From: Agelas oroides
Lineage: Eukaryota; Porifera; Demospongiae; Agelasida; Agelasidae
Direction: 5' to 3'
NCBI GenBank assembly: GCA_949130485.1
Contig: OX422185.1
Span: forward strand, 867,804-931,803
Length of the DNA: 64,000 bases
Part shown: positions 7,977 to 46,152 of the stretch, piece by piece
How the letters are laid out: each line of letters begins with the position of its first letter
Numbering within the stretch: the stretch's first letter is position 1
Made by a program: the position numbers and the translations under genes
The notes under the pieces: model-generated
The model's input: only the letters and a program-made list of their open reading frames with translations
Database searches by the model: none
What the model was told of the DNA's origin: nothing

Positions 7977-10900
7977 TTACAGTTCAGTTATACGCGGTTG
8001 TTTTGGTATTTGTAGTGAACATAGATACTCTGAATACTTCCAGAAGAGCACCAAAACCATCGCAAGATGAGCAAGACAGGCTACGCTCATTACCGAATGC
8101 TGGAAAGAACGAGAGAGGGCTCGACATGCGGCAGAGACAGCCGAGCATAGGCAGGAAAGATTAATGAAGCACAGGGAGAGATAGATAAGATTAACCTTCT
8201 TATACCATTTCAAGCTACTTTTCCTGTCCACCTCTTCTTGCCAGTCTTCCCAGTTCTGTTTTTCTATTTTCCTCTTCCAGGCTGCTGCTGACCCTGACTC
8301 TTCCTCTTCGGCTTCCTCCAAGCCATACTTTCTTAGCAACATCTCATATTCTTCCCTCCAGCCTACTCCACCTGACTCTTTCAATTTTTCTACTATCAGC
8401 TTCACCAGCCTCTCTTCGCCTAGCTCCCAGAATCTCCGCCCATACAACATCTTCTTCTCCTCTCTTCTTTCTTCTAACTTTCTCCATCCCATTTCCCCAC
8501 GGATTGCCTCCCCTGCCACTGTTCTACTAGCTCCCAACAGTTTTCTTCCCAACCTATCCTGTACAGCCTCCAACCTCTTTCCTACTGTCTTCCCTCCTGG
8601 CCACCACACCTCTGCTGCATGTTCCAGGCCAGGCCTTGCTACTAGGTCCCATATCAATCGACCTCGCTCTGCCTCTAGTTCCCCATCCACCCTTGCCATC
8701 CATTCAACTTTGCCTGCCCATTCCTCAGCCTGTTCCACCACCTTCTCCAGCTGCACATTTCCCCTCATCCTCTGGTCAAACCATACACCCAGGTATTTGA
8801 AGGACTCTACTTCTTCCATCTCTTCATCACCAATTTTCCACTTCTCACCACTGTTCTTTTTACCTACCACCATCACCTTACTCTTCCTTGCATTGAACCT
8901 GAACTTCCACATTTCTGCATATCTTCCTACCATATCCAGCATCTTTTGCAACTCCTCACCTGACTCTGCTATCAGCACAATGTCATCAGCATATAGTAAT
9001 GCTCCACACCATACCCCAGACACTTTCACCCCTAAGTTTTCTCTCTCCAACTCTTCCACCATTCCCATAATATAGACACTATACAAGAGTGGTGACAGGG
9101 GGCAGCCTTGCCGGAGTCCCTCGTCTACTCTAAACCACCTTGACTGTTGCCCATCTACTTGAACACTAGCTTGCACCCCTTCATACAGCCCCTCACACAA
9201 ACTAACAAATGATTCTTCCACACCGTATTCCCGCATTTTCCTCCACAGCCCTTCCCTCCACACTGTATCATATGCTTTACTTACATCCATAAAACCCAGC
9301 CAGGTACTTTTCTTCTTTCTCTTCCTCAACTCACATGCACCCCTCAAGATCATAATCTGGTCTGCACACCTCCGTTTTGCCCTGAAACCTCCCTGGGCAT
9401 CTGTCAATATATTTTCTTCTGCATACTCTCCCAGCCGAACTGTCAAAATCTTTGCCCAAACTTTGGCAACACAGCTTCCCAGTGCAATGCCTCTGTAGTT
9501 GCTCGCACTCTCTGGATCGCCATCCTTAAACAGGGGTATGACAAAACTACTCTTCCAATCCTGTGGGTATACTTGGTTTCTCCTCGTTACATTGAACATG
9601 CACCTCATACTTTCCACCATCCTGCTCCCTCCATAAATTAACATCTCATTTAGAATTCCATCTGGGCCTGGCGCCTTCCCCCTCTTCAGCGTCTTCAAAA
9701 CCCTGACCACTTATTCCCATCCTATCTCTTGGCACAGGTCTGAACTTTCATGAACTAGCTCTGGTTCCTGCTCTGGATCCAAACTATTACGACTCTTCCC
9801 TAGCTCCTCCCAATGTTTAGCCAACACCTCCAGAATCTGTTCTGTTTCTTCAACTACTGCTCCGTCCTTCCCTCTCATCCTTGTGATCCTCCGGTTTTTC
9901 TTTTTCCCTCGCAAGTCTGACCAGAATAACTTGCAACTTGGCCCTCCTTGTTCTTTGATTTTCTGCAACTTGTTCTTCCTATTTTTCTTTTTCTCCTTTC
10001 TAATCACCTTCTTCACCTGTCTCCTCTTCTCTCTGTATGTTTTCCAGCATTCATTAACTGCCTCTCCTCTCCTCCTAGCCTGTCTTAGCCGTTTGCAAGC
10101 TTCCCTTCTTGTTTGGATTGCTTCCTCCACTTCCTTCGACCACCAACCCTTAGACAGCTCTGAAATCCTTTTCTTACCAATCCCTCTTTCCGCTGCTGAC
10201 ATCACCTTTGTTTTCCATTCTCCCCATACTCTCTCAACTAGTTCTTCTCCTACTTCCCTGATTTCCACATCTCTCACCCAGGCCTCCCATCCTTGAAATT
10301 CCTCCTCAATTGCTTCCTGAAACTCATCCCAGCTGCTTCTCCCATCAACCCTCCACTTGAACCTTTCTTCTCTCCTCATCTCCTTAGGGTTTCCCACCTT
10401 AAACACACCCCAAACAACATTGTGATCTGACCCTGTATCGATAACCCCCCTGTCTTCTACTATCATTTCCACCAACTCATGCCTATGCTCTTGTGGGAAT
10501 AACATATAGTCAATCACCGATTTCTTGTCTCCACATTCCCAAGTCCACCTTCCCTTACATACAGGCAGCTCGTTACTAATCACCATATTTCCTACATATG
10601 CTAAATTTAGTAACCTCCGTCCATTCTGGTTTGCGACTTCCTCCTCTCCTCTGCCAATATGTGCATTGAAGTCCCCCATTACCACCACTTTGTACCCCAA
10701 TCTACGCCATTCCAGCAAATCAGCTCCTACCTTTTCAAATTGCACTTCAGTTTCTTCACTCCTCACACCCTCAGGATTTGCATAGACCACTCCAACAGCT
10801 ACCTTCCCCTCATCTTCCAGTTTTACTTCTACCCAAAGAACCCCTTCAGTCTCATCCTTTAAGGTTCTAGCTTGCAAACCATCACGAACTAATAACCCCA

Positions 10901-11087
10901 CACCTCCACTTGCCCTCTTACATGCCTTCCTGTTGTTTCCATACCACTTATATCCACCCACCTGAGGCTCCTCTCCCTTCCGTAGAAATGTTTCTGCCAA
11001 GCCAAATATGTCAAGATCTAGCTGCTGCAACACCAAGTTGACATCAACTTCTCTTGACCACCACCCTCTACAATTCAGGAATCCCAA
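7977..11087 (-). pseudogene. LINE ORF2: APE endonuclease + reverse transcriptase, one stop
   Basis: Target-primed retrotransposition polyprotein. The N-terminal half (11087-9714) is an apurinic-type endonuclease: LNCRGWW, GLAETFL, VVVMGDFNAH and the C-terminal GSDHNVVWG. In the same frame, a single TAA at 9713-9711 separates it from the reverse transcriptase (9710 down), which has GKAPGPDGI, SNYRGIALG, GFRAKRRCADQ, FMDVSKAYDTV, GLRQGCPLSPLLY and the catalytic LLYADDIVL. The frame after about 8190 (LIYLSLCFINLS...) looks unrelated and overlaps an antisense Helitron-like scrap, so the 3' end appears truncated. With the single stop, the element is a recent but inactive copy. Clade not assigned. 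Confidence 0.9.
8070..8175 (+). pseudogene. Short Helitron-like N-terminal scrap
   Basis: The plus strand reads NERARHAAETAEHRQERLMK, closely like the repeating 'RARRASETAEQREERL' pattern of the 15540-16128 remnant. It abuts the truncated 3' end of the LINE. Very short; identification depends on that similarity. Confidence 0.4.
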
Positions 11088-11167
11088 CCGAATTACACCT
11101 ACCTCTAGCTCTTCCCCCCCCTTTCCCCTTCCCCCGGCGCGACCCTCCCCTCCCCCCCTCCCATGAC

Positions 11168-12460
11168 TTACAGGGATTCTTGCTGGCTCAGTAGGGGGAG
11201 TGGTTCCCTCTGAGCCATCATCGATATGCAGTTCCAGAGGACTTGCTGTAACATCATCTGCTGAGCTGGATTGCAGTAAACTTGCCCCTGTCCATAACTG
11301 GGAACCCCTCCTTCGATTCCAGGTGACTCCACTGCTTGACCTCTCACTTCTGTTGCTTGTACTCCTGGCTGCCTCTCCACTGGCTTTTGCGCACTTGTTT
11401 TTGCTTGTCCGTTTTTTGGAGTCTCCCCCTGTGCAACTTGAATCTGTGACTTTACCACTGATGTCTTCTCTTGCGCTCCCCCGTTTTTTGGACTCCCCTG
11501 TGCCTTCCTTCCGCCTTGCCCCTGCATGTTTTTATTTGGTCCTTTAGCAACCCCGTTTATTGACTTCCTACCAGTCTTCTCAGGCCATCCACTCGTGGTC
11601 CTGTACGGCCTCCACCCTTTCCGTTCCCTTTTTAAAATGATGGGTTTGCCAATCAAGTTACTGACGTCGTTTCCTGTGGTAGAGACCTGCACTCCTAGCG
11701 TCTCATGTATTTTCACTGGTGACTGTGCTTGAGCTTGGTTTTCTGTCTGGTTCTCCAACTGAAGGATTTTTCTACTGAGCACCTCCAACCTTCTATCCCT
11801 GTGTTCAACGTCTCTTTCCAGAACTTCTATCCGCTTCATCAGATGAAGTAGCAGCTCCACCATCTGAGGGGGTTGTTCTATCAGCGACTGTTCAACGATG
11901 AAAACGTCTTTGCACTTCCTTGCCCCCAGCTGCGTCATAACTTCCTCCTTCATACTCAGCACCGAATTTGACACGTTGGTATCTGTCACTTCTCTCTCAC
12001 TTCTCGCTTCTCTGTACCGTTCTTTTATCGCCGCCTCAACCTCCTCCCCAGTAAACACGCCTCTCTGTGAGCGAAAATTCTCGACGACGTCTCTCACAGC
12101 CTGTTCACGCGCCGCTTTCCTTTCAGCCCCACCCTTCTTGCTCTCTACTGTTCGCTCAGGGCCGTCACTCTCTCCCTCGCTGAACTTCTGGCGGTCTTCG
12201 CTCACCATCTCATCTGCTCTCCGGTCACTACAAGCTTCCTCTATTCTCTTTAGGTCTTCCTCAAACTCCTTCGCACACTTTTCACACCTCCATTCTTCAT
12301 CCGAACTCCCAAGCTGGCATAGCTCTCCTTCGCTCAGGCCACCACACCCACAATGGTACCATTTCTGACATCTTCCTTCGCAAAAGATACCATTCCTCAC
12401 CGTCTTATTGCACTTTCCACACTTTCCACACGAGTTCACCTGCTTCGCCATGTTCGTCAA
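11168..12460 (-). CDS. LINE ORF1 with PHD-type zinc finger
   Basis: A 430-codon open frame ending 80 bp before the ORF2 frame begins, on the same strand: the usual ORF1-ORF2 order of a non-LTR retrotransposon. The N-terminus carries a Cys4-His-Cys3 PHD-like finger (CGKCGKCNKTVRNGIFCEGR, then WYHCGCGGLSEGE and WRCEKC). It is followed by a charged stretch, a coiled-coil-like LLHLMKRIEVLERDVEHRDR, then RLEVLSRKILQLENQ, and a basic, low-complexity, Gln-rich tail. ORF1 proteins bind the element RNA; PHD fingers in ORF1 are known in CR1-like elements. The frame is intact, in contrast to ORF2. Confidence 0.85.
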   Translation of the reverse strand: MTNMAKQVNSCGKCGKCNKTVRNGIFCEGRCQKWYHCGCGGLSEGELCQLGSSDEEWRCEKCAKEFEEDLKRIEEACSDRRADEMVSEDRQKFSEGESDGPERTVESKKGGAERKAAREQAVRDVVENFRSQRGVFTGEEVEAAIKERYREARSEREVTDTNVSNSVLSMKEEVMTQLGARKCKDVFIVEQSLIEQPPQMVELLLHLMKRIEVLERDVEHRDRRLEVLSRKILQLENQTENQAQAQSPVKIHETLGVQVSTTGNDVSNLIGKPIILKRERKGWRPYRTTSGWPEKTGRKSINGVAKGPNKNMQGQGGRKAQGSPKNGGAQEKTSVVKSQIQVAQGETPKNGQAKTSAQKPVERQPGVQATEVRGQAVESPGIEGGVPSYGQGQVYCNPAQQMMLQQVLWNCISMMAQREPLPLLSQQESL

Positions 12461-17732: not shown

Positions 17733-18127
17733 TTACAGTTCATCTTTGACAGTGGTAGAGTAATCTATGTGTTGCATGTGAGCAATGTTGTTAGCAAGTC
17801 TAGCATTATAGAAAGGATAGTCAGCTAAAACCTTCACTACTTGCTCCCAGCAGGCTCTCCCTGTGTCTAGGTATGCCTCCAGGCACCTCCTTTTCTTTAT
17901 GGTACTGTCTGTGTCTATCATGTTACGAAGTCCGTTGATAACAGCTTTTTCTACCCCTAGGTTTTCACAGAGGGTTTCCCAGTTTCCAATCTCTGCCACT
18001 GCCTTTCCAAGTTCTTGCTTGTTTGAGATACTGTGACAGCCCTCTGCAGCTAGAGGAATAAAAGTATAGGAGAATTTCATTCGTGGTGGCCAAATCCAGT
18101 TTAGCCATGCATTTAGGTCATTGGAAA
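17733..18127 (-). CDS. Terminal exon: death-like domain ending in KDEL
   Basis: The minus strand reads from a TACTTGCCAG acceptor through SNDLNAWLNWIWPPRMKF, a spacer, then a six-helix death-domain-like pattern: GNWETLCENLGVEKAVI, RRCLEAYLDTGRACWEQVVK, VLADYPFYNARLANNIAH. The W..L...LG, 'C..Y..TG...W..VV..L' and 'NARLA..I' spacing is typical of death-fold domains that are numerous in sponges and cnidarians (memory-based). The frame ends STTVKDEL-stop, an exact ER-retrieval tetrapeptide. The start phase (two bases) fits both the transmembrane exon at 20527-20447 and the sushi exon at 19543-19367, so it may be the last exon of the Roc-COR/Ig gene. It could also belong to a separate gene. Confidence 0.6.
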
Positions 18128-18371
18128 CTGGCAAGTAGCCAAGTAAATGACAAAAAAATTATTTTCACCACTGTACCCTAATTGGTTAACGATCTCATTA
18201 ACCTTGCCTTTCTGCACTGCAAGCAATAGAAAGCAAGGCACAGCCTAGAAATGGAGCTTTTCTTCTCTCCTGTTCAGGGTCATTGAGGCCAGGTTCAGTC
18301 TCTGCTTGTCATAGATCTACATACCAGCAAGATTTCTCTAACCAGCTTCAAACTTAATGTGAGCATGCATG

Positions 18372-18490
18372 AACAATCAACGAACCACATCTCCCTTATA
18401 AAAACAGGCCTAGATGTTATGCAAAGTCACCCACTGCGCAGGACACGTTTCGGCCAATACCAGGCCTCATCAGCTGCGCTGGGGTGACCG
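18372..18490 (+). repeat. Dispersed repeat (GGCCTAGATGTTAT ... CCAGGCCTCAT)
   Basis: Contains AATCAACGAACCACATCTCC, GGCCTAGATGTTATGCAAAG, TCACCCACTGC and GGCCAATACCAGGCCTCAT. Variants lie at 48465-48545, 51545-51600, 52020-52080, 52795-52925 and, reversed, 42960-43010. The element class is unknown. Confidence 0.55.
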
Positions 18491-18742
18491 GGAGATGGGG
18501 ACTGCCATATCATGCACAGAATGGAGTCAGGTGGCTGGCCTTATTCAAAAGTCGGTAGAGACTCCACATGTCAGACCTTCCTCTGACTTGAATACAAGTA
18601 TGAACTAGAATTTGACAACCTGTGACTTTCATGCATAAAAAAATGCCAAGGAGTTGCAAGACCCATTATAACTATGATCTACTCTACGCAGGATGTGGGT
18701 AGCAATGTATCAAGGCCACAGAAGAGTAGCCCTGTGGGAGAT

Positions 18743-19180
18743 GGTAGTACCAGCCTGGACCAGCCTGGTCTAGAGAAATCTCTATGGTACATGTATGGTA
18801 GTACCAGCCTGGTCTAGAGAAATCTCTATGGTACATGTATGGTAGTACCAGCCTGGACCTGCCTGGTCTAGAGAAATCTCTATGGTACATGTATGGTAGT
18901 ACCAGCCTGGTCTAGAGAAATCTCTATGGTACATGTATGGTAGTACCAGCCTGGTCTAGAGAAATCTCTATGGTACATGTATGGTAGTACCAGCCTGGAC
19001 CTGCCTGGTCTAGAGAAATCTCTATGGTACATGTATGGTAGTACCAGCCTGGTCTAGAGAAATCTCTATGGTACATGTATGGTAGTACCAGCCTGGACCT
19101 GCCTGGTCTAGAGAAATCTCTATGGTACATGTATGGTAGTACCTGCCTGGTCTAGAGAAATCTCTATGGTAAATGTATGC
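18743..19180. repeat. Minisatellite, 44/54-bp units, nine copies
   Basis: Units read TGGTAGTACCAGCCTGGTCT, AGAGAAATCTCTATGGTACATGTA. Longer units carry an extra GGACCTGCCT step. I count nine AGAGAAATCTCTATGG blocks. Each unit contains the self-complementary AGAGAAATCTCT and GGTAGTACC. Long and short units roughly alternate, suggesting higher-order duplication. Confidence 0.9.
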
Positions 19181-19366
19181 ATGTACGTAGTGGGCCAAGC
19201 ATTAATTTCTGTCTGGAATACGCTATCCGAGTATCTGTTTACACATAGTTATCAACAAAACTCCCATTAGTACACTGAGTACACACGAATGTCTACACTA
19301 AGTGTGTGGCAGTGTGAACTGGACCCCAAAAATTGTTCAAAGGGTAATAGGCAGTTTGCAACATAC

Positions 19367-19543
19367 TTTGACAGGTAGGTCCACTCCCAGACCACATTCC
19401 CGTAGGTTGACATGTGCGAATACTGTCTCCCAACAGGTTGTAGCCGGTATTACAGCTGTAGGTAGCTGTCCGTCCAAATGTTGTTCCAGTAGGGTGACTA
19501 ACTCGACCATTGGCTGGGCTGGACAGAGCACCACAGTCCACAA
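19367..19543 (-). CDS. Sushi/CCP-domain exon
   Basis: A 177-bp exon with a TTTTGACAG acceptor and a GTATGT donor, coding one sushi (complement control protein) module: VDCGALSSPANGRVSHPTG, FGRTATYSCNTGYNLLG, DSIRTCQPTGMWSGSGPTCQ. The four cysteines (DCG, YSC, RTC, PTC), the Trp and the GxxP are in canonical spacing, so this is a secreted or ectodomain module stabilised by two disulfides. Both ends have the same phase (symmetric exon). It therefore could be included or skipped between the transmembrane exon upstream and the death-like exon downstream, or it may belong to another gene. Confidence 0.8.
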
Positions 19544-19694
19544 CTGTCAAAATGAGGAACACAACATGTACTTGTAATGTGCACGTGTGAAAAGTGGAAT
19601 AGATGAACTAATGGTAGCCATTGGCTGTGTTAGCCAACACTACATACAACTGTCAAAATAACGTGTTACAAGATGCAAGGGAAAGGCAATGATA

Positions 19695-20234
19695 TACTGT
19701 AGGCACTGGTTGTTAAGTGCAGCTCTTTATAATTTATTGAGGGTTTTAGCCATCATGTGTTAGGTGCATGCGCTTAATAAATGAACTTTGAACTTTAAGC
19801 GAACGTGTCGAGCAAAACGTGTCAAGTAGTACGAAGAACGAAGAGAATGGCTGAACTAGCACTGGGAAGTAGTTTAGTCAGGAAGCGAAAAAGCTACACA
19901 AGAGAAGAGAAACTGAAGATAGTAAACAACTACTACAACAATGGAAAGAACCTATACCAGACGTGAAAGAAGTTCTCGCAAAATATGAAGAGTGTTCAGT
20001 GCCAGATCTGCTTGTAAATGTGATGGCCATGAATGACGCTCTCTAAAGTACTTGCTTGACGCTCTGCCCTGTTGAACGAGCGATATAACGGAAGCAGCGA
20101 AAACACCGCCCACAATTTTCACACCCATTTAATAAGCGACTATTTGTTGTTAAGCACACGTCCACTGTTAAGCGCATATTTCCTTGCTGTCAGCTGTTAT
20201 AAGCGCATGTGCTTAACAACCAGCACCTCTGGTA
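19695..20234 (+). mobile_element. pogo/Tigger-like transposon, deleted
   Basis: Inverted ends: left TACTGTAGGCACTGGTTGTT, right AACAACCAGCACCTCTGGTA. Inside, the plus strand starts MAELALGSSLVRKRKSYTRE followed by EKLKIVNNYYNNGKNLYQT, the N-terminal Psq/CENP-B-type helix-turn-helix of pogo transposases. After a stop, a C-terminal scrap reads CSVPDLLVNVMAMNDAL. The DDE core is missing. It lies between the sushi and transmembrane exons of the minus-strand gene. Confidence 0.75.
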
Positions 20235-20446
20235 TATTAAGCCACACTCGGGTGTCAAGTCAAGTGCATGTGTGCGTTGTACTTCAGGTACATCAAAATC
20301 TAATGGTAGTCCATTTTTGGGAGGCATGTTCGTAATGTATAAGAAGGAAGGGAGGGAGAGGTATGTTGAACGCAGAGCCATATGGTGCTGAAGCTTTAGT
20401 CTTAGTTTAATATGTTGTGTCATTTCTAAAGTAAGCCATGACTTAC

Positions 20447-23400
20447 ATAAAGTGCCAAACAGTGCCAACACCACAGCGGTGATGAGGAAGCCACAGATTT
20501 TGAGTAGCTTCCAATGGCATCTCTCATCTGTAGAAAGAACACAGTGGTGATCAATGATTGCAAACTTTATTCCTTACAGGAAGTATATCCACCAAACTAA
20601 CTTATTATTCCATGACTAAATTAAGAATACACACATTGTTAATCTGATGAAACTCACACACAGTAAGCTGAGCTTCCTCTGAAATTTCCCCATCTTCTTT
20701 CACCTCATTCTTCACTACACATTTGTAGCGACCAGCATCACTCTTGTTCACTTGTCGAATCGTCAGTGTATGGGTGGTAGCTCCATTGTGTCTACTGTCA
20801 TTGGGCACATTACTGCCATTCTTCTGCCATTGATATGTAAGATTATCTCCACCAGCTTTAATGGAAAATGTTGCTTCTTCTCCAGTAGGTATTTGCTGGT
20901 TTTCAGGGTGCTGAGTGATCACGGGTGGATCAACTGAGGGGAAAGAGGGCAGTATTTATAAGCACCAAAAATGCAAATGTTGACAAATCTGATGAAACTC
21001 ACACACAGAAAGTTGAGCCTCCTCTGAAATTTCTCCATCTTCATTCACCTCATTCTTCACTACACATTTGTAGCGACCAGCGTCACTCTTGTTCACTCTT
21101 TCAATCGTCAGTGTGTGGGTGGCAGCTCCATTGTGTCTACTGTCATTGGGCACATTACTGCCATTCTTCTGCCACTGATATGTAAGATTATCTCCAGCAG
21201 CTTTAATAGAAAATGTTGTTTCGGCTCCAGTGGGTATTTGCTGGTTTTCAGGGTGCTTGGTGATCTTGGGTGGATCAACTGAGGTGAAAGAGGGCAGTAT
21301 TTATAAGCACCAAAAATGCAAATGTTGACAAATCTGATGAAACTCACACACAGAAAGCTGAGCCTCCTCTGAAATTTCCCCATCTTCTTTCACCTCATTC
21401 TTCACTACACATTTGTAGCGACCAGCATCACTCTTGTTCATTTGTTGAATCGTCAGGCTGTGGGTGGTAGCTCCATTGTGTCTATTGCCATTGGGCACAT
21501 TACTGCCATTCTTCTGCCACTGATATGTAAGATTATCTCCACCAGCTTTAATACAAAATGTGGTTTCTCTTCCAGTGGGTATTTGCTGGTTTTCTGGGTG
21601 CTGAGTGATCACGGGTGGATCAACTGAGCGGAAAGAGGGCAGTATTTATAAGCACCAAAAATGCAAATGTTGACAAATCTGATGAAACTCACACACAGCA
21701 AGCTGAGCCTCCTCTGAAATTTCCCCATCCTTGTTCACCTCATTCTTCACTACACATTTGTAGCGACCAGCATCACTCTTGTTCACTTGTCGAATCGTCA
21801 GTGTATGGGTGGTAGCTCCATTGTGTCTATTGCCATTGGGCACATTACTGCCATTCTTCTGCCACTGATATGTAAGATTATCTCCACCAGCTTTAATAGA
21901 AAATGTGGTTTCTCCTCCAGTGGGTATTTGCTGGTTTTCTGGGTGCTTGGTGATCTTGGGGGGATGCTTTCCCTCTATGTAATTCTTCACATGGCACCTG
22001 TAGCGACCTTTGTGAGTCTTCTCTGCATCTAAGATACGTAAAGTGTGAGTGTTAGTGCCACGATATCCATCACGATCAGTGATGTCAACGCATTCCTTTT
22101 GCCATTGGAACTGAAGCTTATCTCCCGTCGCTTCAACCTTGAACACTGCTTCTGCTTCAGAAGGCACTAACTCTTCTTCTGGATGTGACTGAATAGTTGG
22201 CTAGTGGAAAGGAAACAATGCTCATCTGATGTATACAGTAGATTTATGTCAGCAGAGTATCCCTAATAATCACAATTCTTAACATTAGACAAAAATGGGA
22301 TGTGCACATTTTTGTCAGCATACAATTGTCTACTCACCTCTGGAAGCCATGCATACCAGCATAGACTTGGCTCCACTTTCTCAAGGGACTGATTACACTG
22401 AAAGGAATGGACTTTTAATAAGTGTTCAAACTTTAGAACCGGTTGTAGCACAACTGGGTGACATTTCTTGCATTCATTGCACCAGCCTTCAAATGAAAGA
22501 AAGTAGTCTTTATGCGCTTTCAGCGAGTAATGTAATGTCTTACATGCTCTGTCAATATTTTCAAAAATCAGTTTGCGAACACCATTACAGAGGATTGACA
22601 GGGTTGACAGAGGTACATTTGGGTGGCAAGGGATAATTTCAATGTAGACATGGGTGGCTCTGACTCTCAAACGAAGAGTACCCTCATTCATTTTGAAACA
22701 GATTTGATCTCGGAAGATTTTTGATTTATCTAAATCAAGTGTAGAATTCACCACTTGTTTGTTTGCAATACAAGCTACAAGTGATCCAAACAGCCCTTTA
22801 GGGCAGTAGCCACACTTGAATGTTATCAGCAGAGGAGGGATGGCACCTGATTGTGTGGAATCACTGGAACTGGCTTCTTCAAGGTGAGTAATGGCACAAG
22901 GCATGAAATACTTTTTCTGGTCACCATTTTTATTTTCACCATCACCAAGTGGTACAATCACATTAAGGTGCTCAAGGAGGTCTAGCAACATTGAGGGAGT
23001 CAGCTTACTACGAGATCCTTTAGTAAGTCTCACATAATCTGCTCTTGTAAATAAACCCCGATTGAAATATTCAGTACATTGGCCAGAAAGAGTCTTTTCA
23101 AATACGAATGTTCTTTCAACTAATTGATTCACCATGCTAAAAACATACTGTGGGTCTCGGATCACAATTGCATTGAGATCAGATGGTTCAGTGTAATAAT
23201 GAAGCACTCCAGTTTGCTTGTGAAGAAACTGGAGAGCTGCTTCAAACTCAGTTGGAGATTTGATGCCACATTCACGGGCAACCTCGAAACAATCATGCTT
23301 GCTGATGACACTATCTTTTGCAAACTCATGCTGCATTAGTGTGCTAAAAATTAGCCATGGAGCAGGAGTGTGGACCTTAAAATCATCAGAAATTATTTGT

Positions 23401-24989
23401 AAAGCATCACGTATCTTTTTTGCATCTTTGTCAGATTCATCATCAGAGGCATTGTTTATAGTAAACACCATCTGTGTTTCAGAGGCATCCAATATCATAC
23501 CCTTACTGTAAGCATCCGTTTTTTTGACCAGTTCTTTAACATCGTCTATTTTTGCCTGACATTCCTCCTGTGAGACTTTGTCTTTGAAAGTGGCAACAAG
23601 CATCACCCTTGGTTTGATTTTGTTTCCATCTTCATCCTTGTACTCAGTAAAAGCAATGCTTCCAAGAGATCGCAACAGATCTTCTTCTACAGTGAGACTG
23701 GAAAGATATTTTCGCATGCACTTCTGTTCATCTGGTCTCACATACTCTACTTCATATCTACTCTTTAGGTCTTTATCAAGGGGAAAGACTATGAAGAAAA
23801 CACAAGGGCCTACTACTAGTGCTGATAAGAGCTCTTGAAACTCAGGTTGGCCCCCCGAGTCAGTTAGGTACAGGGTCCGTTTGTTATCTACATGTTCTTT
23901 CAATCCAGAAACACCTTTTTCCTTCAAAACCTTTCGAAAGAAATCCATGCTCATACTGTACTGGTGAGTTGGAGAATCAGTGCTGAGTTCAGATGAATTC
24001 CCTCCTTCTGCAGGCGAGTAGATCTCAGGGCTATCACTTCGTATTTGTTTGGATACTTGTTCTTTCTTGTTGCTCCCCACGGAATCATTTCCTTGGAATA
24101 CATTTTCCTGTTGTGCAGATGCTTGTTGTACAATTGAATCATCTATTCGTTTTGTAGACAATTGCCTCATTAGTCGAGATTTCCGTGAAATTGAATTCTT
24201 TCTTTTCATCTTCTGTTTTCTAGAGAGCTGCCCAATTAGTCCAGAAGCCTGTGTCTTTGGATCCTCAATTATTTTCCAATCAAAATCTGACACTTGAGCA
24301 ACAGTTGTTGAAACATCCCTGATGATTTCAACTTGTACTGACCTTTCTGCTGCTTGGGTACTAGTGCGTATCTGATTCAACTTCATGCGAAGTAAGCGTT
24401 TTAGTAACGAACTCTTCCCCACTCCAGCTGGTCCCACAAATATACAATGCATGATAGTTTGATCCATTGTTCCAGACTGACGCATTACTTGCTCACATAC
24501 GGATAAGTAATGATCGACATCTGCATTAAAAGTACATATATACACTGTAAGTAAACAAGGGAATATACATCATTTTTCAGTCCCACTTCAGGCTATAGTA
24601 AGTAGATCAATACTTTCACCGTACCCATCACTGGAATTTTGTGTTAACTAGTGGGATGATTCATCATCTTGGGGCGAGCCTGAACAAGCAGCACACTGTT
24701 GTTTTACTAATTTGTCATGGCATATAGCAGGATTTGCCACTATAGCCAAATTTCAAAACACACAAGTAGCTAAGTCCTCACCTGAGATAGCCAAGTATCA
24801 CATATGCCAGCCATTTCTCCAGCCAGGGCAGCTAATGTAGCTACATATGCATGGACTATAGTTTACAATGAAATCATGAGCTGAATTTCTAGCGTTTATG
24901 AGTGCCGTTCATGCCATGCATGACTGACTCTTACCTGAAGCGACCTCAACCACTGTCCATATTTTTACCACCGGTGAGCAGCCTGCCAT
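20447..24989 (-). CDS. Roc-COR GTPase with five Ig-like repeats and a transmembrane segment
   Basis: Start ATG at 24989. Exons (minus): 24989-24935, 24520-22338, 22200-21693, 21623-21348, 21278-21003, 20933-20658, 20527-20447; all junctions keep phase. The large exon holds a ROCO-type GTPase: P-loop GPAGVGKSS, a long Ser-rich insert, switch DSGGQPEFQELL, then a COR-like region (VHTPAPWLIFSTLMQHEF onward). Ig repeats follow (first one QWQKECVDITD...GRYRCHVKN; later ones QWQKNGSNVP...GRYKCVVKN). The B-strand Cys is replaced (FKVEA, FSIKA) except in one repeat (FCIKA), while the F-strand Cys stays, so the canonical disulfide cannot form. The last exon reads YERCHWKLLKICGFLITAVV, LALFGTL: a single membrane helix preceded by basic residues. 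Roc-COR proteins are GTP-regulated dimers; a role in innate signalling is only inference. The 3' exons are uncertain. Confidence 0.85.
20658..21623 (-). repeat. Three tandem 276-bp Ig exons
   Basis: Exons 21623-21348, 21278-21003 and 20933-20658 are each 276 bp, in the same phase. Each has a CTCAG acceptor, TTGATCCACCC at its start and a GTGAGTTTC donor. Intron and exon sequences are almost identical between copies, so they arose by recent unequal duplication or are kept alike by conversion. Each encodes one Ig-like repeat. Confidence 0.9.
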
Positions 24990-25347
24990 TGATAGCACAA
25001 ACCAGAAGTAAGTTGCCACATGCGCTTTAACTTCGCTCCGGGTCAGTGAGCTGCACTCGGGAATGCAGTAGCCCTCATAACATGCTTCGCGCACGAGATA
25101 TAGAGATCAATCTTCATGAAGTGTTTGAATGCACTCATTTAAAATGTAGGTATATGGATGCAAGCAAGCACATACGTACATAAACACACTTCCGCAATGC
25201 AGTCCCGCTAGGGTGGGGCTCGCTCAGGCTCTAGCTAGAAGCATTCTGCTCTTGGTGTTTATAAGCCCCTGGCTCTATTTGTTCTCATCTTTGAATATTG
25301 TTGGGATATATGTCTGTAACTAAACTATGTTTTGAGGGCTACCGTGG

Positions 25348-25866
25348 AATAAAGTATGATGCTACTTCATAAAGTATGATGCTACTTGTTAAAGTATGAT
25401 CCTACTTCATAACGTATGATGCTACTTCATAAAGTATGATGCTACTTCATAACGTATGATGCTACTTCATAACGTATGATGCTGCTTCATAACGTATGAT
25501 GCTGCTTCATAACGTATGATGCTGCTTCATAACGTATGATGCTGCTCCATAACGTATGTTGCTGCTCCATAACGTATGTTGCTGCTCCATAACGTATGAT
25601 GCTGCTTCATAACGTATGATGCTACTTGTTAAAGTATGATGCTACTTCATAACGTATGATGCTGCTTCATAAAGTATGATGCTACTTCATAATGTATGAT
25701 GCTACTTCATAACGTATGATGCTGCTTCATAACGTATGATGCTGCTTCATAATGTATGATGCTACTTGTTAAAGTATGATGCTACTTGTTAAAGTATGAT
25801 GCTACTTGTTAAAGTATGATGCTACTTGTTAAAGTATGATGCTACTTGTTAAAGTATGATGCTACT
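25348..25866. repeat. 20-bp minisatellite, about 26 copies
   Basis: Unit CATAAAGTATGATGCTACTT with variants CATAACG, GTTAAAG and GCTGCTT. Variants are grouped in blocks: GCTG versions in the middle, TTGTTAAAG versions at the right end. Lies upstream (5') of the Roc-COR gene start. Confidence 0.92.
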
Positions 25867-26315
25867 TTATTGCTACTATGTAAACTATGTAAAATAATCT
25901 CCACTTTACCTGTGTACCTTTTACTGTTTCTATAGTAACAGGTGGATATTAAACCACAAAGTTCGTTTCTTAACCTTGTTTCATCGTCTCCCCACAATCT
26001 AATGCAAGCAATGGAAAGCTGGGCGGGACCTGGGATTGAGGCTAAATGTTTAACAGTAGCAGAGTCAGGCCTCATAATTCAGTATCCCTGTAGCATGGTA
26101 TAGTAGTCTGAGTTTAGCTGCGAAGTGACCTGTACGAATAAAATCACCTCAAACTCAAATTCAGTATTTGCGGGATGTGCTGGGTTTTCGTTCAGTGGGT
26201 AACAATTCCTGAGATCAGCAGTGAAGAATTTTCAAGTGGCCTTGCTGTGCTGCCCAATAAATGTGAGTGGCACAAGGAAATTTTTTGATGTTGGATTACA
26301 GTATTCCTGGCTTAC

Positions 26316-28513: not shown

Positions 28514-32089
<3,576 letters not shown>

Positions 32090-38404: not shown

Positions 38405-41400
38405 CAGTGCTGTGTCATCTTGATTGTCCTGTTGTGGTAGTGTGTATGCAAACTTGACTCCTTCTGCAACTTGATCACTGCTAGAGGGTTCCTCAACTGG
38501 AGACGTCTCGTCTACCAATGTGATACCTGGGAGGAAGGGAGGGAGGAGGAAGATGGGAGGAAGGGAGGGATGGGAGGGACAGCAAGGTATGTTGTGTAAC
38601 ATACGAAGAGGGGTGTGATGAATGTATAGAGGGAGGGAGGGAGGGGGAGGGAGGGGGTATACATGTCCAGGTTTGCCAACAATGCATTGTTAGGAGGTGG
38701 GGTTAGGGTTAGGGTTGTGATTAGAGAACAAAGAACAAAAGAAGATCAAAGGCACTACTAAGCCTGTCCCCAGACTCCACCTCTCACGAGGAGAAAAGGT
38801 CTGGTGAACCAAGTCGAATTTCTTGGGCTAGCGCACGCTTTTGCGACAATGTAACCTAGCAACATTCAAAACATTTTGCGGCCAACCCACTCAAAAAAGG
38901 TACGGATACTCGAACTGTTGTAAGGAAGTGCTATGTAATAATTACTGATCTCAGAATTTCATTGGCACTTTTGGGGAATAAGCCCAAGGGATTCGACTTC
39001 GTTCACCAGACTGTTTCTTGACGAGAGGCATGCACGGGCTGGGCACACCTCTCGGCGGGCAATGAGGGAGGGACAGAGAGAGGGAGGGAGGGAGGGAGGG
39101 AGGGGGGCAGGCATGAGGGAGGGGAGGCATGAGAGAGGGAGGGAGGAGGTTGGTTCTTACCCCAGTCATTGCTCTCATGTATGACCTCATCTGATTGGTT
39201 GGTTTGTGGTGTCTCTTCAGGAGGAGGATGGGAAGCCAGATACGCCTGTGAGGGGTTGAGAGGATTATGATTATGTTAGGGAGTGATGGTGTGAGGGGGT
39301 GATGGTGTGAGGAGTGATGGCAGAGGGGGTGATGGTGTGAGGGAATGATGGGACAGTACCTATACCTGTACCTGATGTTCCTGTTGTCTGAGTCGACAGT
39401 GCTGGTTGTCACACTGAGGGTTTGGTTTCATAGACCAGCTGGGGAAGAAGTCACTCATTGCATTGTAGCCAACGTACTGAGACACTGTGCCAAACTTGAG
39501 GAGATATCTGGAGAGAGGAAGGAGGGAGGAGAGAGGGAGGAGGGAGACAGGAGGGAGAGAGGAGGGAGGAAAGAAGGAGAGGGAACAAAGGAGGCGGGAA
39601 AGAGGGAGAGAGGGAGGAGGGAGGAGGGAGGAGGGAGAGAGGAGGGAGGGAGATAGGAGGGAGTGGAGAGAGGAGGGAGTGGAGAGGGAGAGCAGGAGAG
39701 GAAGGAATGGGGAGAGGAGTTGAGGACGGGGAGCTCACTTGAGGGTGTTTTGCACCAGTAGTCCTGCTACCACAGCCATAGTGGTGGGGAGGGAAGCCGC
39801 ACACACTCCCTCACGTTTCAACGTCTTTTCATCAATACCAGACGCCACCACCAGCGGAGGGGCACACTGAGGAGATGGGAAGAGAGAATTTTAAGACAGG
39901 AGGGGAAGAAGGGATCAGTTATCAGGTAGACATACACATGAACTAAAGGTACTTTTGTTTAACCTCTGCTTAACAACAACCTTCACAAGTTGACATCTAC
40001 ATACATGTATAAGTTAGATACTGAGACCAAGGGATCTACGGTATTTAGAAACCGAGGGTCCTGGGCTGTAGCGACCCGAGCGCAGCGGCGAGGGTTTCTA
40101 AATACCGTAGATCCCGTTGGTCGAGGTATCTAAGTTATTTAGAGTGTAGCCTCCCTAGAGTGTATTCCTTGCTTACATTATAAACAATTCTTGTGTACTA
40201 AACAACATAAAAATTGCTATTGTAGTAAACAATTTTGATAGCCTCAGAGACGGGTCTCTATTGCAATAGAGACCTACAAAGCAGGTCTCTATTGCATTTA
40301 GAGACCGACCAATCAAATTCATGAATAGATGCAAAGCAGCAAACCGGTCTTGACCATGATGTACTAGTGATATGTCTGTAGCACAGGACAATCCCATACG
40401 TATGTGACAGTCCCGTGTAGAATATGCGCTTCGTAGATGTATCTATGAATCACGTATGAGCCCCGCCCTTAACGAAAGGTCAGTGATACGGTGCTTTGAA
40501 CCTTTGAACGCGGTGATAGGGTCGAAATACATGACGGAATAATCTTTGATTTCTACACGGGACTGCCACATACACATGTACATCTCAAAGTTTCTAGAAG
40601 GTTAATCCACACACATCTCAATTTTTCTGAGGACCTTGACATGCATGAGAAACCATATAAATGTATGTATTCACAAACAACACTCAAATTAACACACACA
40701 CAAATCCCTCCCCCTCTCACTGCAAAGCAGGCAGTTTCTCCTGGTTTCACGAGCTGAATATGTCCAGACACGGCGTTCTCACTCACTCCACTCTCCACCC
40801 AGACCTGCCCCAGCTCATTGCACGCCTGGTTGATGGCCATACGTGCCTCAAAGTTGTCCACACAGCTCAGAACCAGGTCCACAGCACGACCATCACATAG
40901 GTGACCTTGACTGGGAGAGGACAAGGGAGGGAGGGAGAGGTGGAGGGCGGAGAGGGAGGACAGGTGAGAGGAGTGAGCATCTTCTTATGAGAAGTTAGTC
41001 TCGCTAGCCACACCCCTCTTTCACTAAGTGTGACATTGTGCAAACGATCATGGTATTTTGTACATTATCATGTGCACATCAGGGGGAAGGAGACGAGGGG
41101 GAGGGAGACGAGGGGGAGAGAGAAGGGTGGAATAGCATGCCATAATGACCACCACTGTAGCTGAGAGTGGACAGGGGAAAGCGGGGTACTGTACGTTTAT
41201 CTCTGTGCATCCATAATACAAGTACATGTACATTGACAGTGCCATTACAATTTATATGGTACATGAAAATATACAAGGCTATGCATATACCTGATTCGTC
41301 CCATGAAGTGTTGGAAATTGTCGACTGTTGTAATGTTGTAGTTGTACACTTCAATTTCCACATCTGGGTTGATCCCACTGTGAGGAGAGATGGAGGGACG

Positions 41401-44877: not shown

Positions 44878-45108
44878 GGCTTTTCAAAATTACAGTACAA
44901 CAGAGGTCAGATACGAATAATTAGAACAGGATGTACTACTGAGCCCCGCCTTCAATTTTCTGCATCGCGCAATATATTTCACTCTGCAGCTTAGTGAGAA
45001 GTGATTCTACGTGCGAGAGAGGATTTGAACACAGATAATACACCCTCTCACAAGCAAACAACAGCAGACAACGCGTGAAAGGCACAGCCGGAAAGCAACC
45101 GTAGATAC
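44878..45108. promoter_or_regulatory. Shared promoter between UBA5 and the CRD gene
   Basis: Only 231 bp separate the UBA5 start codon (minus strand) from the double-CRD start codon (plus strand), so transcription must start divergently from this stretch. It contains a CCCCGCC box near 44945 and GCGCAATATATTTCACTC near 44966; no TATA box is placed convincingly for either gene. Transcription start sites cannot be fixed from sequence alone. Confidence 0.65.
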
Positions 45109-46152
45109 ATGATGGTGCGTACAGCAGGCGTTCTGCTGGTAGTGTGGCTCTCGATTTCAGCCATCAAAGCGCAGAGAGATGACAGGCAGGTGCGCCCTCC
45201 TGTGAATGGAGACGAGCGAACGTGTGAAGTGATCAACGTGAATCTCTGTCGGGGACTTGGACTCAACGGCTCGCTACCCAATCCGCGTGGACACACAACA
45301 CAAGATGCGGCTGGTGCCGAACTCAATGACTTTCAAATTCTAGTCAACACTAGCTGCTCGACCGTGCTACTGCATTTCCTTTGCAGTTTTTACCTGCCTA
45401 CCTGCACGATCTTTAATGGTATGATTTTTACTCTCAGACCGTGCAGAAGTTTGTGCGAGTCTGTCAGAAGTAGCTGCGAATCCGAATACGATAATTTCCC
45501 CAACCTCAACTGGCCAACGTTCTTCAATTGCTCCACTGACAATTTTGGAGATGACCCTGAAAACTTTGGAGATCCACCCTGTTTTGGGCCTGATGTTCCC
45601 ACTACGCTCCCCCCCTCCACCTCTCCTCCCACCACCACCACCACAGCAGTCAGTACAGCTCCCCCAACCACTAGCACACAGTGCGAGAGAATCCAGATAT
45701 CCTTCTGTCAGAATGTTGGCTACAATTGGACCAGTCAAGCTTGGCGTGAACAGCAAAACTCTTTAGCAGAACTTGAGACATTTGTACCCTTGGTACGAGC
45801 AAGATGCTCACAAGCAATTGTCCATTTTCTCTGTGCGTTTCATGTTCCTGAATGTCAAGCACAGCGGACAGTCTTGCAGCCTTGCAGAGACATGTGTGAG
45901 TTTGTTCAAGAAGGGTGTTTAGCAACATTTGAAAGGGCAGGCATTTCCTGGCCTGTTAACTGTGACCGTCTACCCACAAGGTCGCAATCCTGCAGTGGTC
46001 CCACGGACTTAACAGCAGTGTCCATACCTCTCATACCAGGTATTACAGACACTGTCGAACCTCCCACAAGTGGTTCACGCGTTATTTCCCCCTCCCAGGT
46101 AGTTATTATGACTATGAGTATTCTGTTAGTTCCTTTGTTTAGTCTCAACTGA
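45109..46152 (+). CDS. Secreted/GPI-type protein with two Frizzled cysteine-rich domains
   Basis: Intronless frame of 347 codons. Signal peptide MMVRTAGVLLVVWLSISAIK, then CRD1 (about residues 38-157, from TCEVINVNLCRGLG to FGDPPCFG) and a Pro/Thr linker (STSPPTTTTTAVSTAPPTTS). CRD2 (about 190-295) runs from QCERIQISFCQNVGYNW to SQSCSG. Each CRD has exactly ten cysteines in the Frizzled/sFRP order. The C-terminus VVIMTMSILLVPLFSLN is a short hydrophobic tail after a small-residue region, which fits a GPI-anchor signal better than a seven-pass receptor. CRDs bind lipidated Wnt or sterol-like ligands, so an extracellular ligand-binding or antagonist role is inferred. A similar arrangement is not known to me among vertebrate sFRPs, which have one CRD plus a netrin-like domain. 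Confidence 0.93.
   Translation: MMVRTAGVLLVVWLSISAIKAQRDDRQVRPPVNGDERTCEVINVNLCRGLGLNGSLPNPRGHTTQDAAGAELNDFQILVNTSCSTVLLHFLCSFYLPTCTIFNGMIFTLRPCRSLCESVRSSCESEYDNFPNLNWPTFFNCSTDNFGDDPENFGDPPCFGPDVPTTLPPSTSPPTTTTTAVSTAPPTTSTQCERIQISFCQNVGYNWTSQAWREQQNSLAELETFVPLVRARCSQAIVHFLCAFHVPECQAQRTVLQPCRDMCEFVQEGCLATFERAGISWPVNCDRLPTRSQSCSGPTDLTAVSIPLIPGITDTVEPPTSGSRVISPSQVVIMTMSILLVPLFSLN

What the first reader, a model, noticed from the sequence alone, without database searches (positions are those of the whole stretch)
17733..24989. Membrane-anchored Roc-COR GTPase with a disulfide-free Ig array
The sequence shows a ROCO-type GTPase (GPAGVGKSS, DSGGQPEF) spliced in phase to five Ig-like repeats and one membrane helix. 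All but one repeat lack the B-strand Cys, and basic residues (ERCHWKLLK) precede the helix. Both fit a cytosolic GTPase + Ig array held at a membrane with its C-terminus outside or lumenal. Extracellular Ig repeats are not expected on a Roc-COR protein. I do not know a described protein with this order, and a sensor or receptor-like role is speculation.
Basis: partly seen in the sequence, partly recalled or inferred. Interest (0 to 1): 0.75.

Follow-up and report, generated by a model that had tools for sequence, protein, structure and literature searches.

The report
Membrane-anchored ROCO GTPase with Death domain
An animal gene appears to join a ROCO GTPase (the family of the Parkinson's protein LRRK2) and five immunoglobulin repeats to a membrane helix, a sushi module and a Death domain that ends in KDEL, the tag that keeps proteins in the endoplasmic reticulum; if so it is a new design of membrane switch.

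Summary
On the minus strand a Roc-COR exon joins in phase to five Cys-poor Ig repeats and one membrane helix.

The genome holds 132 COR-A matches; 15 of 132 have a same-strand Ig match within 4 kb downstream, none upstream or antisense. Seven of 13 inspected COR-Ig loci have a membrane-helix exon after the Ig array; five have sushi too. In a hand-made table, seven of seven helix- or signal-linked Death exons end in -EL, three as KDEL.

Best reading: an ER membrane protein with ROCO-Ig in the cytosol and sushi-Death-KDEL in the lumen. Architecture is well supported, topology moderately, function inferred. A lumenal Death domain would be new to me; skipping of the symmetric helix and sushi exons is the main rival.

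The parts
22338..24520 (-). Roc-COR GTPase exon (about 728 codons; P-loop GPAGVGKSS, DSGGQ, TFKD; long low-complexity insert between P-loop and DSGGQ)
   Evidence: Pfam COR-A 3.1e-10; open frame with acceptor and GAG|GTGAGT donor; dN/dS 0.17-0.38 among A, B, C and D1
21693..22200 (-). Ig1+Ig2 exon, entry phase 0, exit phase 1
   Evidence: Pfam Ig_3 8.5e-27; Ig matches also found after other COR loci
21348..21623 (-). Ig3 exon (phase 1-1), the one repeat with a B-strand Cys
21003..21278 (-). Ig4 exon (phase 1-1)
20658..20933 (-). Ig5 exon (phase 1-1)
20447..20527 (-). membrane-helix exon, 81 nt, phase 1-1; basic residues (ERCHWKLLK) before the helix
   Evidence: hydropathy 2.27; 96% nt identity in B and C, same frame and splice sites; helix exons at the same place at D3, E, L101, L102
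   Evidence: Pfam Sushi 1.1e-11; in frame with helix and last exon; two copies in B and in C; also at D3 and E
17733..18049 (-). terminal exon: Death-fold domain with four conserved Cys, stop at 17735-17733
17736..17747 (-). C-terminal KDEL (AAA GAT GAA CTG) before TAA
   Evidence: exact KDEL at two other loci with 68% and 76% identical domains

Best explanation
The gene encodes a single-pass membrane protein of the ER (N-terminus in the cytosol, C-terminus in the lumen). Shown by sequence: exon order Roc-COR, five Ig, membrane helix, sushi, Death fold, KDEL, all in phase, and kept in whole or part at several paralogous loci. Inferred: the helix acts as a signal anchor, so Roc-COR and the disulfide-free Ig array stay in the cytosol while sushi and the Death fold enter the lumen, where KDEL receptors return the protein to the ER. 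Inferred with less support: the lumenal sushi-Death part binds or oligomerises on a lumenal signal, the Ig array is a cytosolic spacer or scaffold, and the Roc-COR GTPase is the dimerising switch that passes the signal on; the large, tandemly duplicated, exon-swapping family suggests an innate-immune or ER-stress sensor. Confidence is for architecture plus topology together; architecture alone I put near 0.9 and the sensor role near 0.3.
For: Same order at near paralogs B and C and at E, a compact locus with Roc-COR 52% identical, four Ig, helix, sushi and a Pfam Death domain (2e-5, above cut-off). D3, L101 and L102 have a helix after the Ig array with basic WK-type residues before it. No phase 1-1 helix exon was found between sushi and the last exon in A, B, C4 or D3 or E. 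KDEL is exact at three loci (window, C4:5106317, C3:12989690), the other two 76% and 68% identical to the window, with synonymous codon changes inside the motif; seven of seven helix- or signal-linked ends tabulated are -EL. C4 has a signal-peptide-like exon, at least 12 intact sushi exons, then Death-KDEL. B-strand Cys is absent in 34 of 35 distinct Ig repeats, F-strand Cys present in 35 of 35. dN/dS is below 1 in the pairs computed: Roc-COR 0.17-0.38, last exon 0.10-0.70, sushi 0.18-0.88.
Against: Known Death domains act in the cytosol (recalled). No transcript or protein data. Helix and sushi exons are symmetric, so they may be skipped. E has no basic residues before its helix. KHEL, RGEL and SGEL do not fit the strict KDEL pattern, and the table of ends was made by hand after the pattern was noticed. 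In B a 5-bp insertion breaks the last exon near its start, and in C a frameshift removes KDEL. D3 has a hydrophobic peak of 2.03 between sushi and the last exon, though no fitting exon was found there. Six of 13 inspected COR-Ig loci show no helix in the fetched 5-6 kb, and B and C are near copies of the window, so the seven positives are five independent ones. Helix exons were sought under a phase 1-1 assumption. Whether the cysteines pair was not tested. The 5' exon is unknown.
Confidence: 0.55

Rival explanations
1. Alternative splicing decides the place: helix and sushi exons are cassettes, the main product is a soluble cytosolic Roc-COR-Ig-Death protein (DAPK-like order with an Ig spacer), and the membrane form is minor. 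KDEL would then be incidental in the soluble form.
For: The exons Ig3, Ig4, Ig5, helix and sushi are all phase 1-1, so skipping the helix keeps the frame. Locus C11:250819 has Roc-COR, Ig and a Death match 43% identical to that of E with no helix exon found, and ends FILE. Death domains normally work in the cytosol (recalled).
Against: Exact KDEL at three loci and -EL at the seven helix- or signal-linked ends tabulated would have no role in the cytosol. Sushi exons keep four Cys and have dN/dS below 1 in the pairs computed, though up to 0.88.
Confidence: 0.25
2. Two genes are read as one: a ROCO-Ig gene and a separate sushi-Death gene that lie in line by duplication.
For: Sushi-Death-KDEL exists without a Roc-COR or Ig match in the fetched stretch at C4. 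In the window 2.4 kb with a tandem repeat lie between helix and last exon.
Against: At E everything from Roc-COR to Death lies within about 5.3 kb with introns down to about 170 bp. The order recurs at B, C, D3 and E. The window helix exon and its open frame hold no Met, and it has an acceptor in phase with Ig5.
Confidence: 0.1
3. A decaying copy: the window gene is a pseudogene of a once functional family.
For: B and C have frameshifts in the last exon; the window copy does not share the 5' flank that B and C have in common and has a repeat there.
Against: The window chain has no internal stop; Roc-COR dN/dS is 0.17 (A-B) and 0.35 (A-C).
Confidence: 0.1

Closest known systems
DAPK1-type ROCO proteins (kinase, ankyrin, Roc-COR, Death; order recalled)
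   Same: Roc-COR followed by a C-terminal Death domain
   Different: Here Ig repeats, a membrane helix and sushi lie between, and KDEL ends the chain; no kinase was found upstream and the ankyrin exons at 32.1-30.2 kb read like a MYPT1-type gene
Placozoan ROCO expansion (Trichoplax, at least 17 genes; PMC4104024, passages and section 5 part 1 of 2)
   Same: Roc-COR with Death or CARD partners; lineage-specific expansion
   Different: Partners named in the part read are CARD, Death, TPR, LRR, AAA and Ras-like; no Ig, sushi, membrane helix or KDEL named there (its Figure 1 not seen)
Aplysia TLRs and MyD88-like proteins with ROC and COR domains (PMC9334734, passages)
   Same: ROCO joined to immune-receptor parts, including TLRs
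   Different: LRR/TIR partners; no Ig array, sushi and KDEL in the passages seen
Brown-algal LRR-ROC-COR expansion (PMC11378527, abstract and section 14)
   Same: Large ROCO family with repeats in separate exons that shuffle; proposed immune receptors
   Different: LRR before Roc, not Ig after COR
ATF6-type ER sensors (recalled)
   Same: Cytosolic N-terminal effector, one helix, lumenal C-terminal part
   Different: No sequence relation tested or expected; effector is a GTPase here

Membership tests
ROCO (Roc-COR) proteins | Ras-like GTPase directly followed by COR | tested here: met
   Ras 22.2 bits (cut-off 21.6), Roc 26.5 bits (cut-off 27, just missed), COR-A 40.5 bits (cut-off 35.3) in one exon; P-loop, DSGGQ and TFKD present, T310 and D313 invariant in an alignment of nine ROCO proteins of this genome
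ROCO (Roc-COR) proteins | Complete COR with its second half (COR-B) | tested here: inconclusive
Death domain superfamily | Six-helix Death fold | tested here: met
Death domain superfamily | Acts in cytosolic signalling complexes (recalled) | not testable with these tools
   KDEL and sushi argue for the lumen here
DAPK family | N-terminal kinase and ankyrin repeats (recalled) | tested here: inconclusive
   Pfam frame scan of the minus strand 34.8-24.9 kb listed only ankyrin families up to E 0.05, in exons that read like MYPT1; the 5' exon of this gene is unknown
KDEL-retrieved ER proteins | C-terminal [KRHQSA][DENQ]EL (pattern recalled) | tested here: met
   KDEL before the stop
KDEL-retrieved ER proteins | C-terminus in the lumen, ER residence | not testable with these tools
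   Supported indirectly by sushi, basic residues before the helix and paralog C4
Extracellular Ig receptors | Ig domains with B-F disulfide, array led by a signal peptide | tested here: not met
   34 of 35 distinct repeats lack the B-strand Cys; Ig1 follows COR in phase

The most novel reading that the evidence does not exclude
A family of ER-resident receptors that carries a Death domain inside the ER lumen, tethered through sushi modules and one helix to a cytosolic Ig array and a ROCO GTPase switch. Death-fold assembly would then take place in an oxidising compartment (four conserved Cys in the domain) and be read out by GTPase dimerisation across the membrane.
Probability: 0.4. Interest if true: 0.88.

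Novelty: new variant of a known kind. Interest (0 to 1): 0.7.

Why it matters
ROCO proteins such as LRRK2 and DAPK1 are known as cytosolic or peripheral switches (recalled). A ROCO built into the ER membrane with a lumenal Death fold would show that evolution has wired this GTPase to a lumenal sensor, and would give a natural test of how Roc-COR dimerisation can be driven from across a membrane. It would also be, as far as I can recall, the first Death domain with an ER-retrieval tag. The family is large (132 COR-A matches in this genome) and in part tandemly duplicated, with Ig and sushi exons gained and lost, which fits an immune repertoire.

Tried and rejected
Ankyrin-Roc-COR: the ankyrin exons at 32.1-30.2 kb read like a MYPT1-type gene (recalled) and were not joined to this gene. 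A common 5' exon among A-E was sought and not found. A second helix between sushi and the last exon, which would bring the Death part back to the cytosol: no phase 1-1 exon found (A, B, C4, D3; E). Raw hydropathy: D3 has a peak of 2.03 there; stretches first pass 1.6 in A (three), C4 (two) and D3 (two), none in E; these lie in frames without fitting splice sites and were judged intronic. Bacterial and viral relatives: Roc-COR gave none, the last exon none in viral contigs, Ig only bacterial and viral Ig-like hits of no use here (48 and 3 loci). PDB sequence search of Roc-COR found nothing; of the last exon only a chance barstar hit; the profile of ten family members nothing. NCBIfam gave only generic GTPase or P-loop hits below cut-off. 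Upstream of the C3:12989690 helix Pfam listed nothing in 7.5 kb. Ig exons versus introns: copies Ig2-Ig4 differ at 31 of 273 exon sites but 2 of 69 intron sites (p 0.04, sites not independent); not pursued. In print: of the rows shown by searches (20 of 58; 1; none; 1; 20 of 84; none; 3; 8 of 25), I recognised no paper on a Roc-COR, Ig, membrane helix, sushi and Death chain; the library holds open-licence papers only. Taxonomy of the host was not tested.

Errors of mine: searches used exon ends off by one or two (corrected); the Ig1 rows are out of frame and not used; one search used an out-of-frame sushi query and is used for no count; the W36 column is misplaced, and that call lists one repeat of locus E twice (36 rows, 35 repeats). 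One search used the 132 COR places but only the 85 best Ig places, typed by hand, so 15 of 132 is a lower bound in that respect; but two of the 15 (C1:6064517, C1:6061891) share one Ig match. One search used C-terminal tetrapeptides typed by hand, after the pattern was noticed. Left out of it: B and C (frameshifted), L067, L068, L072, L074, L075 (no clear end) and L069 (broken, ends IIEL in another frame). A weak Death match at L105 (26%, E 0.001) was not counted.
Full report
What is there. A sushi exon at 19543-19367 is also in phase between helix and last exon. Pfam recognises COR-A (3.1e-10), Ras just above its cut-off, Roc just below, the Ig repeats and the sushi module.

The start. Near paralogs B and C are 99% identical to the window over the Roc-COR exon but unrelated upstream of its acceptor, while B and C resemble each other there. 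The acceptor before Roc-COR and the first codons after it have counterparts at D1 and E, so an upstream coding exon is likely, but none was found.

The family. COR-A has 132 matches in the 259-Mb genome, 98 over the cut-off. Of these 132, 15 have an Ig match on the same strand within 4 kb downstream, none upstream and none on the other strand (85 Ig places used; two of the 15 share one Ig match). This makes the Roc-COR-Ig junction a family trait and not a chance of this window. Downstream stretches of 13 COR-Ig loci were read (A, B, C, D3, E, L096, L097, L100-L105: twelve of the fifteen, plus D3). A helix exon follows the Ig array in seven (A, B, C, D3, E, L101, L102; B and C are near copies of A), sushi follows the helix in five (A, B, C, D3, E), and a Death-type last exon is seen in eight (those seven and L097). 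Six show no helix in the 5-6 kb fetched. D3 is less certain than the others: the nearest Roc-COR (32% identical) lies about 6 kb before its Ig array, in a locus with further ROCO pieces.

The clearest relative. Locus E (C3, about 4055.2-4060.5 kb) is compact: Roc-COR 52% identical over its length, four Ig, helix, sushi, and a last exon that Pfam calls Death (2e-5, 25.1 bits against 22.6). The same order with a different Death sequence makes a chance alignment of exons very unlikely.

The ER tag. The window protein ends VKDEL. So do the related exons at C4:5106317 and C3:12989690, although the domains are only 76% and 68% identical to the window, with synonymous changes within the motif. Other ends are KHEL (D3), REEL (L066), SEEL (L101), RGEL (L102) and SGEL (E); those at C11, C18 and two C2 loci are not -EL. 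In a table of twelve loci, typed by hand after the pattern was noticed, seven of seven linked to a helix or signal-peptide exon end in -EL, against one of five of the rest, where helices were looked for only in part. Locus C4 has a signal-peptide-like exon (MLNVIGLLLLCVLCAVG, by eye), at least twelve intact sushi exons beside two broken ones, then Death-KDEL, with no helix exon found between. This is the best evidence that this Death module sits in the lumen.

Topology. Residues before the helix are basic in A (ERCHWKLLK), D3 (GHKWKK), L101 (GQNWKK) and L102 (GRNWKYLLK), but not in E (YNWTQL). Cys is missing at the B-strand place in 34 of 35 distinct Ig repeats. Both fit cytosolic Roc-COR and Ig. 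Sushi and KDEL fit a lumenal C-terminus. With one helix, the Death part must lie opposite the GTPase if all exons are joined. The alternative is that helix and sushi exons are skipped, which keeps the frame.

Selection and decay. Roc-COR dN/dS is 0.17 to 0.38 among A, B, C and D1; last exon 0.21 (A-C4), 0.27 (A-C3:12989690) and 0.45 (A-D3), range over the 15 pairs 0.10 to 0.70; sushi 0.35 (A-D3), range 0.18 to 0.88. B has a 5-bp insertion near the start of its last exon and C a frameshift that removes KDEL, so this part is not kept in all copies.

Literature. ROCO with Death or CARD partners is described in Trichoplax (PMC4104024, section 5 part 1 of 2), ROC-COR in Aplysia TLRs and MyD88-like proteins (PMC9334734, passages), shuffled LRR exons in brown-algal ROCO (PMC11378527, abstract and section 14), and AP-GTPase-COR with variable C-terminal domains in bacteria (PMC8195603, passages). 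A type II ER membrane protein with both cytosolic and lumenal signals is described in plants (PMC2799409, outline and abstract). PMC12909245 (outline and passages) mentions Ig-TIR and sushi-NACHT combinations in a sponge. None of the passages seen describes the chain reported here.

Verdict. Architecture well supported; ER type II topology more likely than not; function as a cross-membrane GTPase sensor is a proposal. New variant of a known kind, because each module is known and only the combination and the compartment are new.

Noticed in passing
20658-21966: Ig2-Ig5 are 345-bp tandem units; among Ig2-Ig4 the exons differ at 31 of 273 sites but the introns at 2 of 69, as if exons diversify or introns are homogenised.
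   Followed up: partly
30208-32089: Ankyrin-repeat exons on the minus strand that read like the start of a MYPT1 (PPP1R12A)-type gene (name recalled).
   Followed up: partly
24645-25231: Dispersed repeat (51 matches listed, itself included) just upstream of the Roc-COR exon.
   Followed up: yes
45079-46149: Frizzled-type Fz domain (Pfam 6.7e-44) on the plus strand.
   Followed up: no
40556-40984: ThiF-family exon on the minus strand (Pfam ThiF 5.1e-12), UBA5-like by recall.
   Followed up: no
7980-11531: Retrotransposon-like open frames: reverse transcriptase and endonuclease domains; a further reverse-transcriptase frame at 1034-1624.
   Followed up: no
25349-25867: 20-bp tandem repeat, 26 copies.
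   Followed up: no
L052, L053 (C2, C14): Frames with LRR-like, Roc-COR and kinase-like stretches, LRRK-like by eye, among the other ROCO genes of this genome.
   Followed up: no
L063, L089, L094 (C4:5104817-5122500): Locus with a signal-peptide-like exon, at least 12 intact sushi exons and a Death-KDEL exon, without a Roc-COR match.
   Followed up: partly
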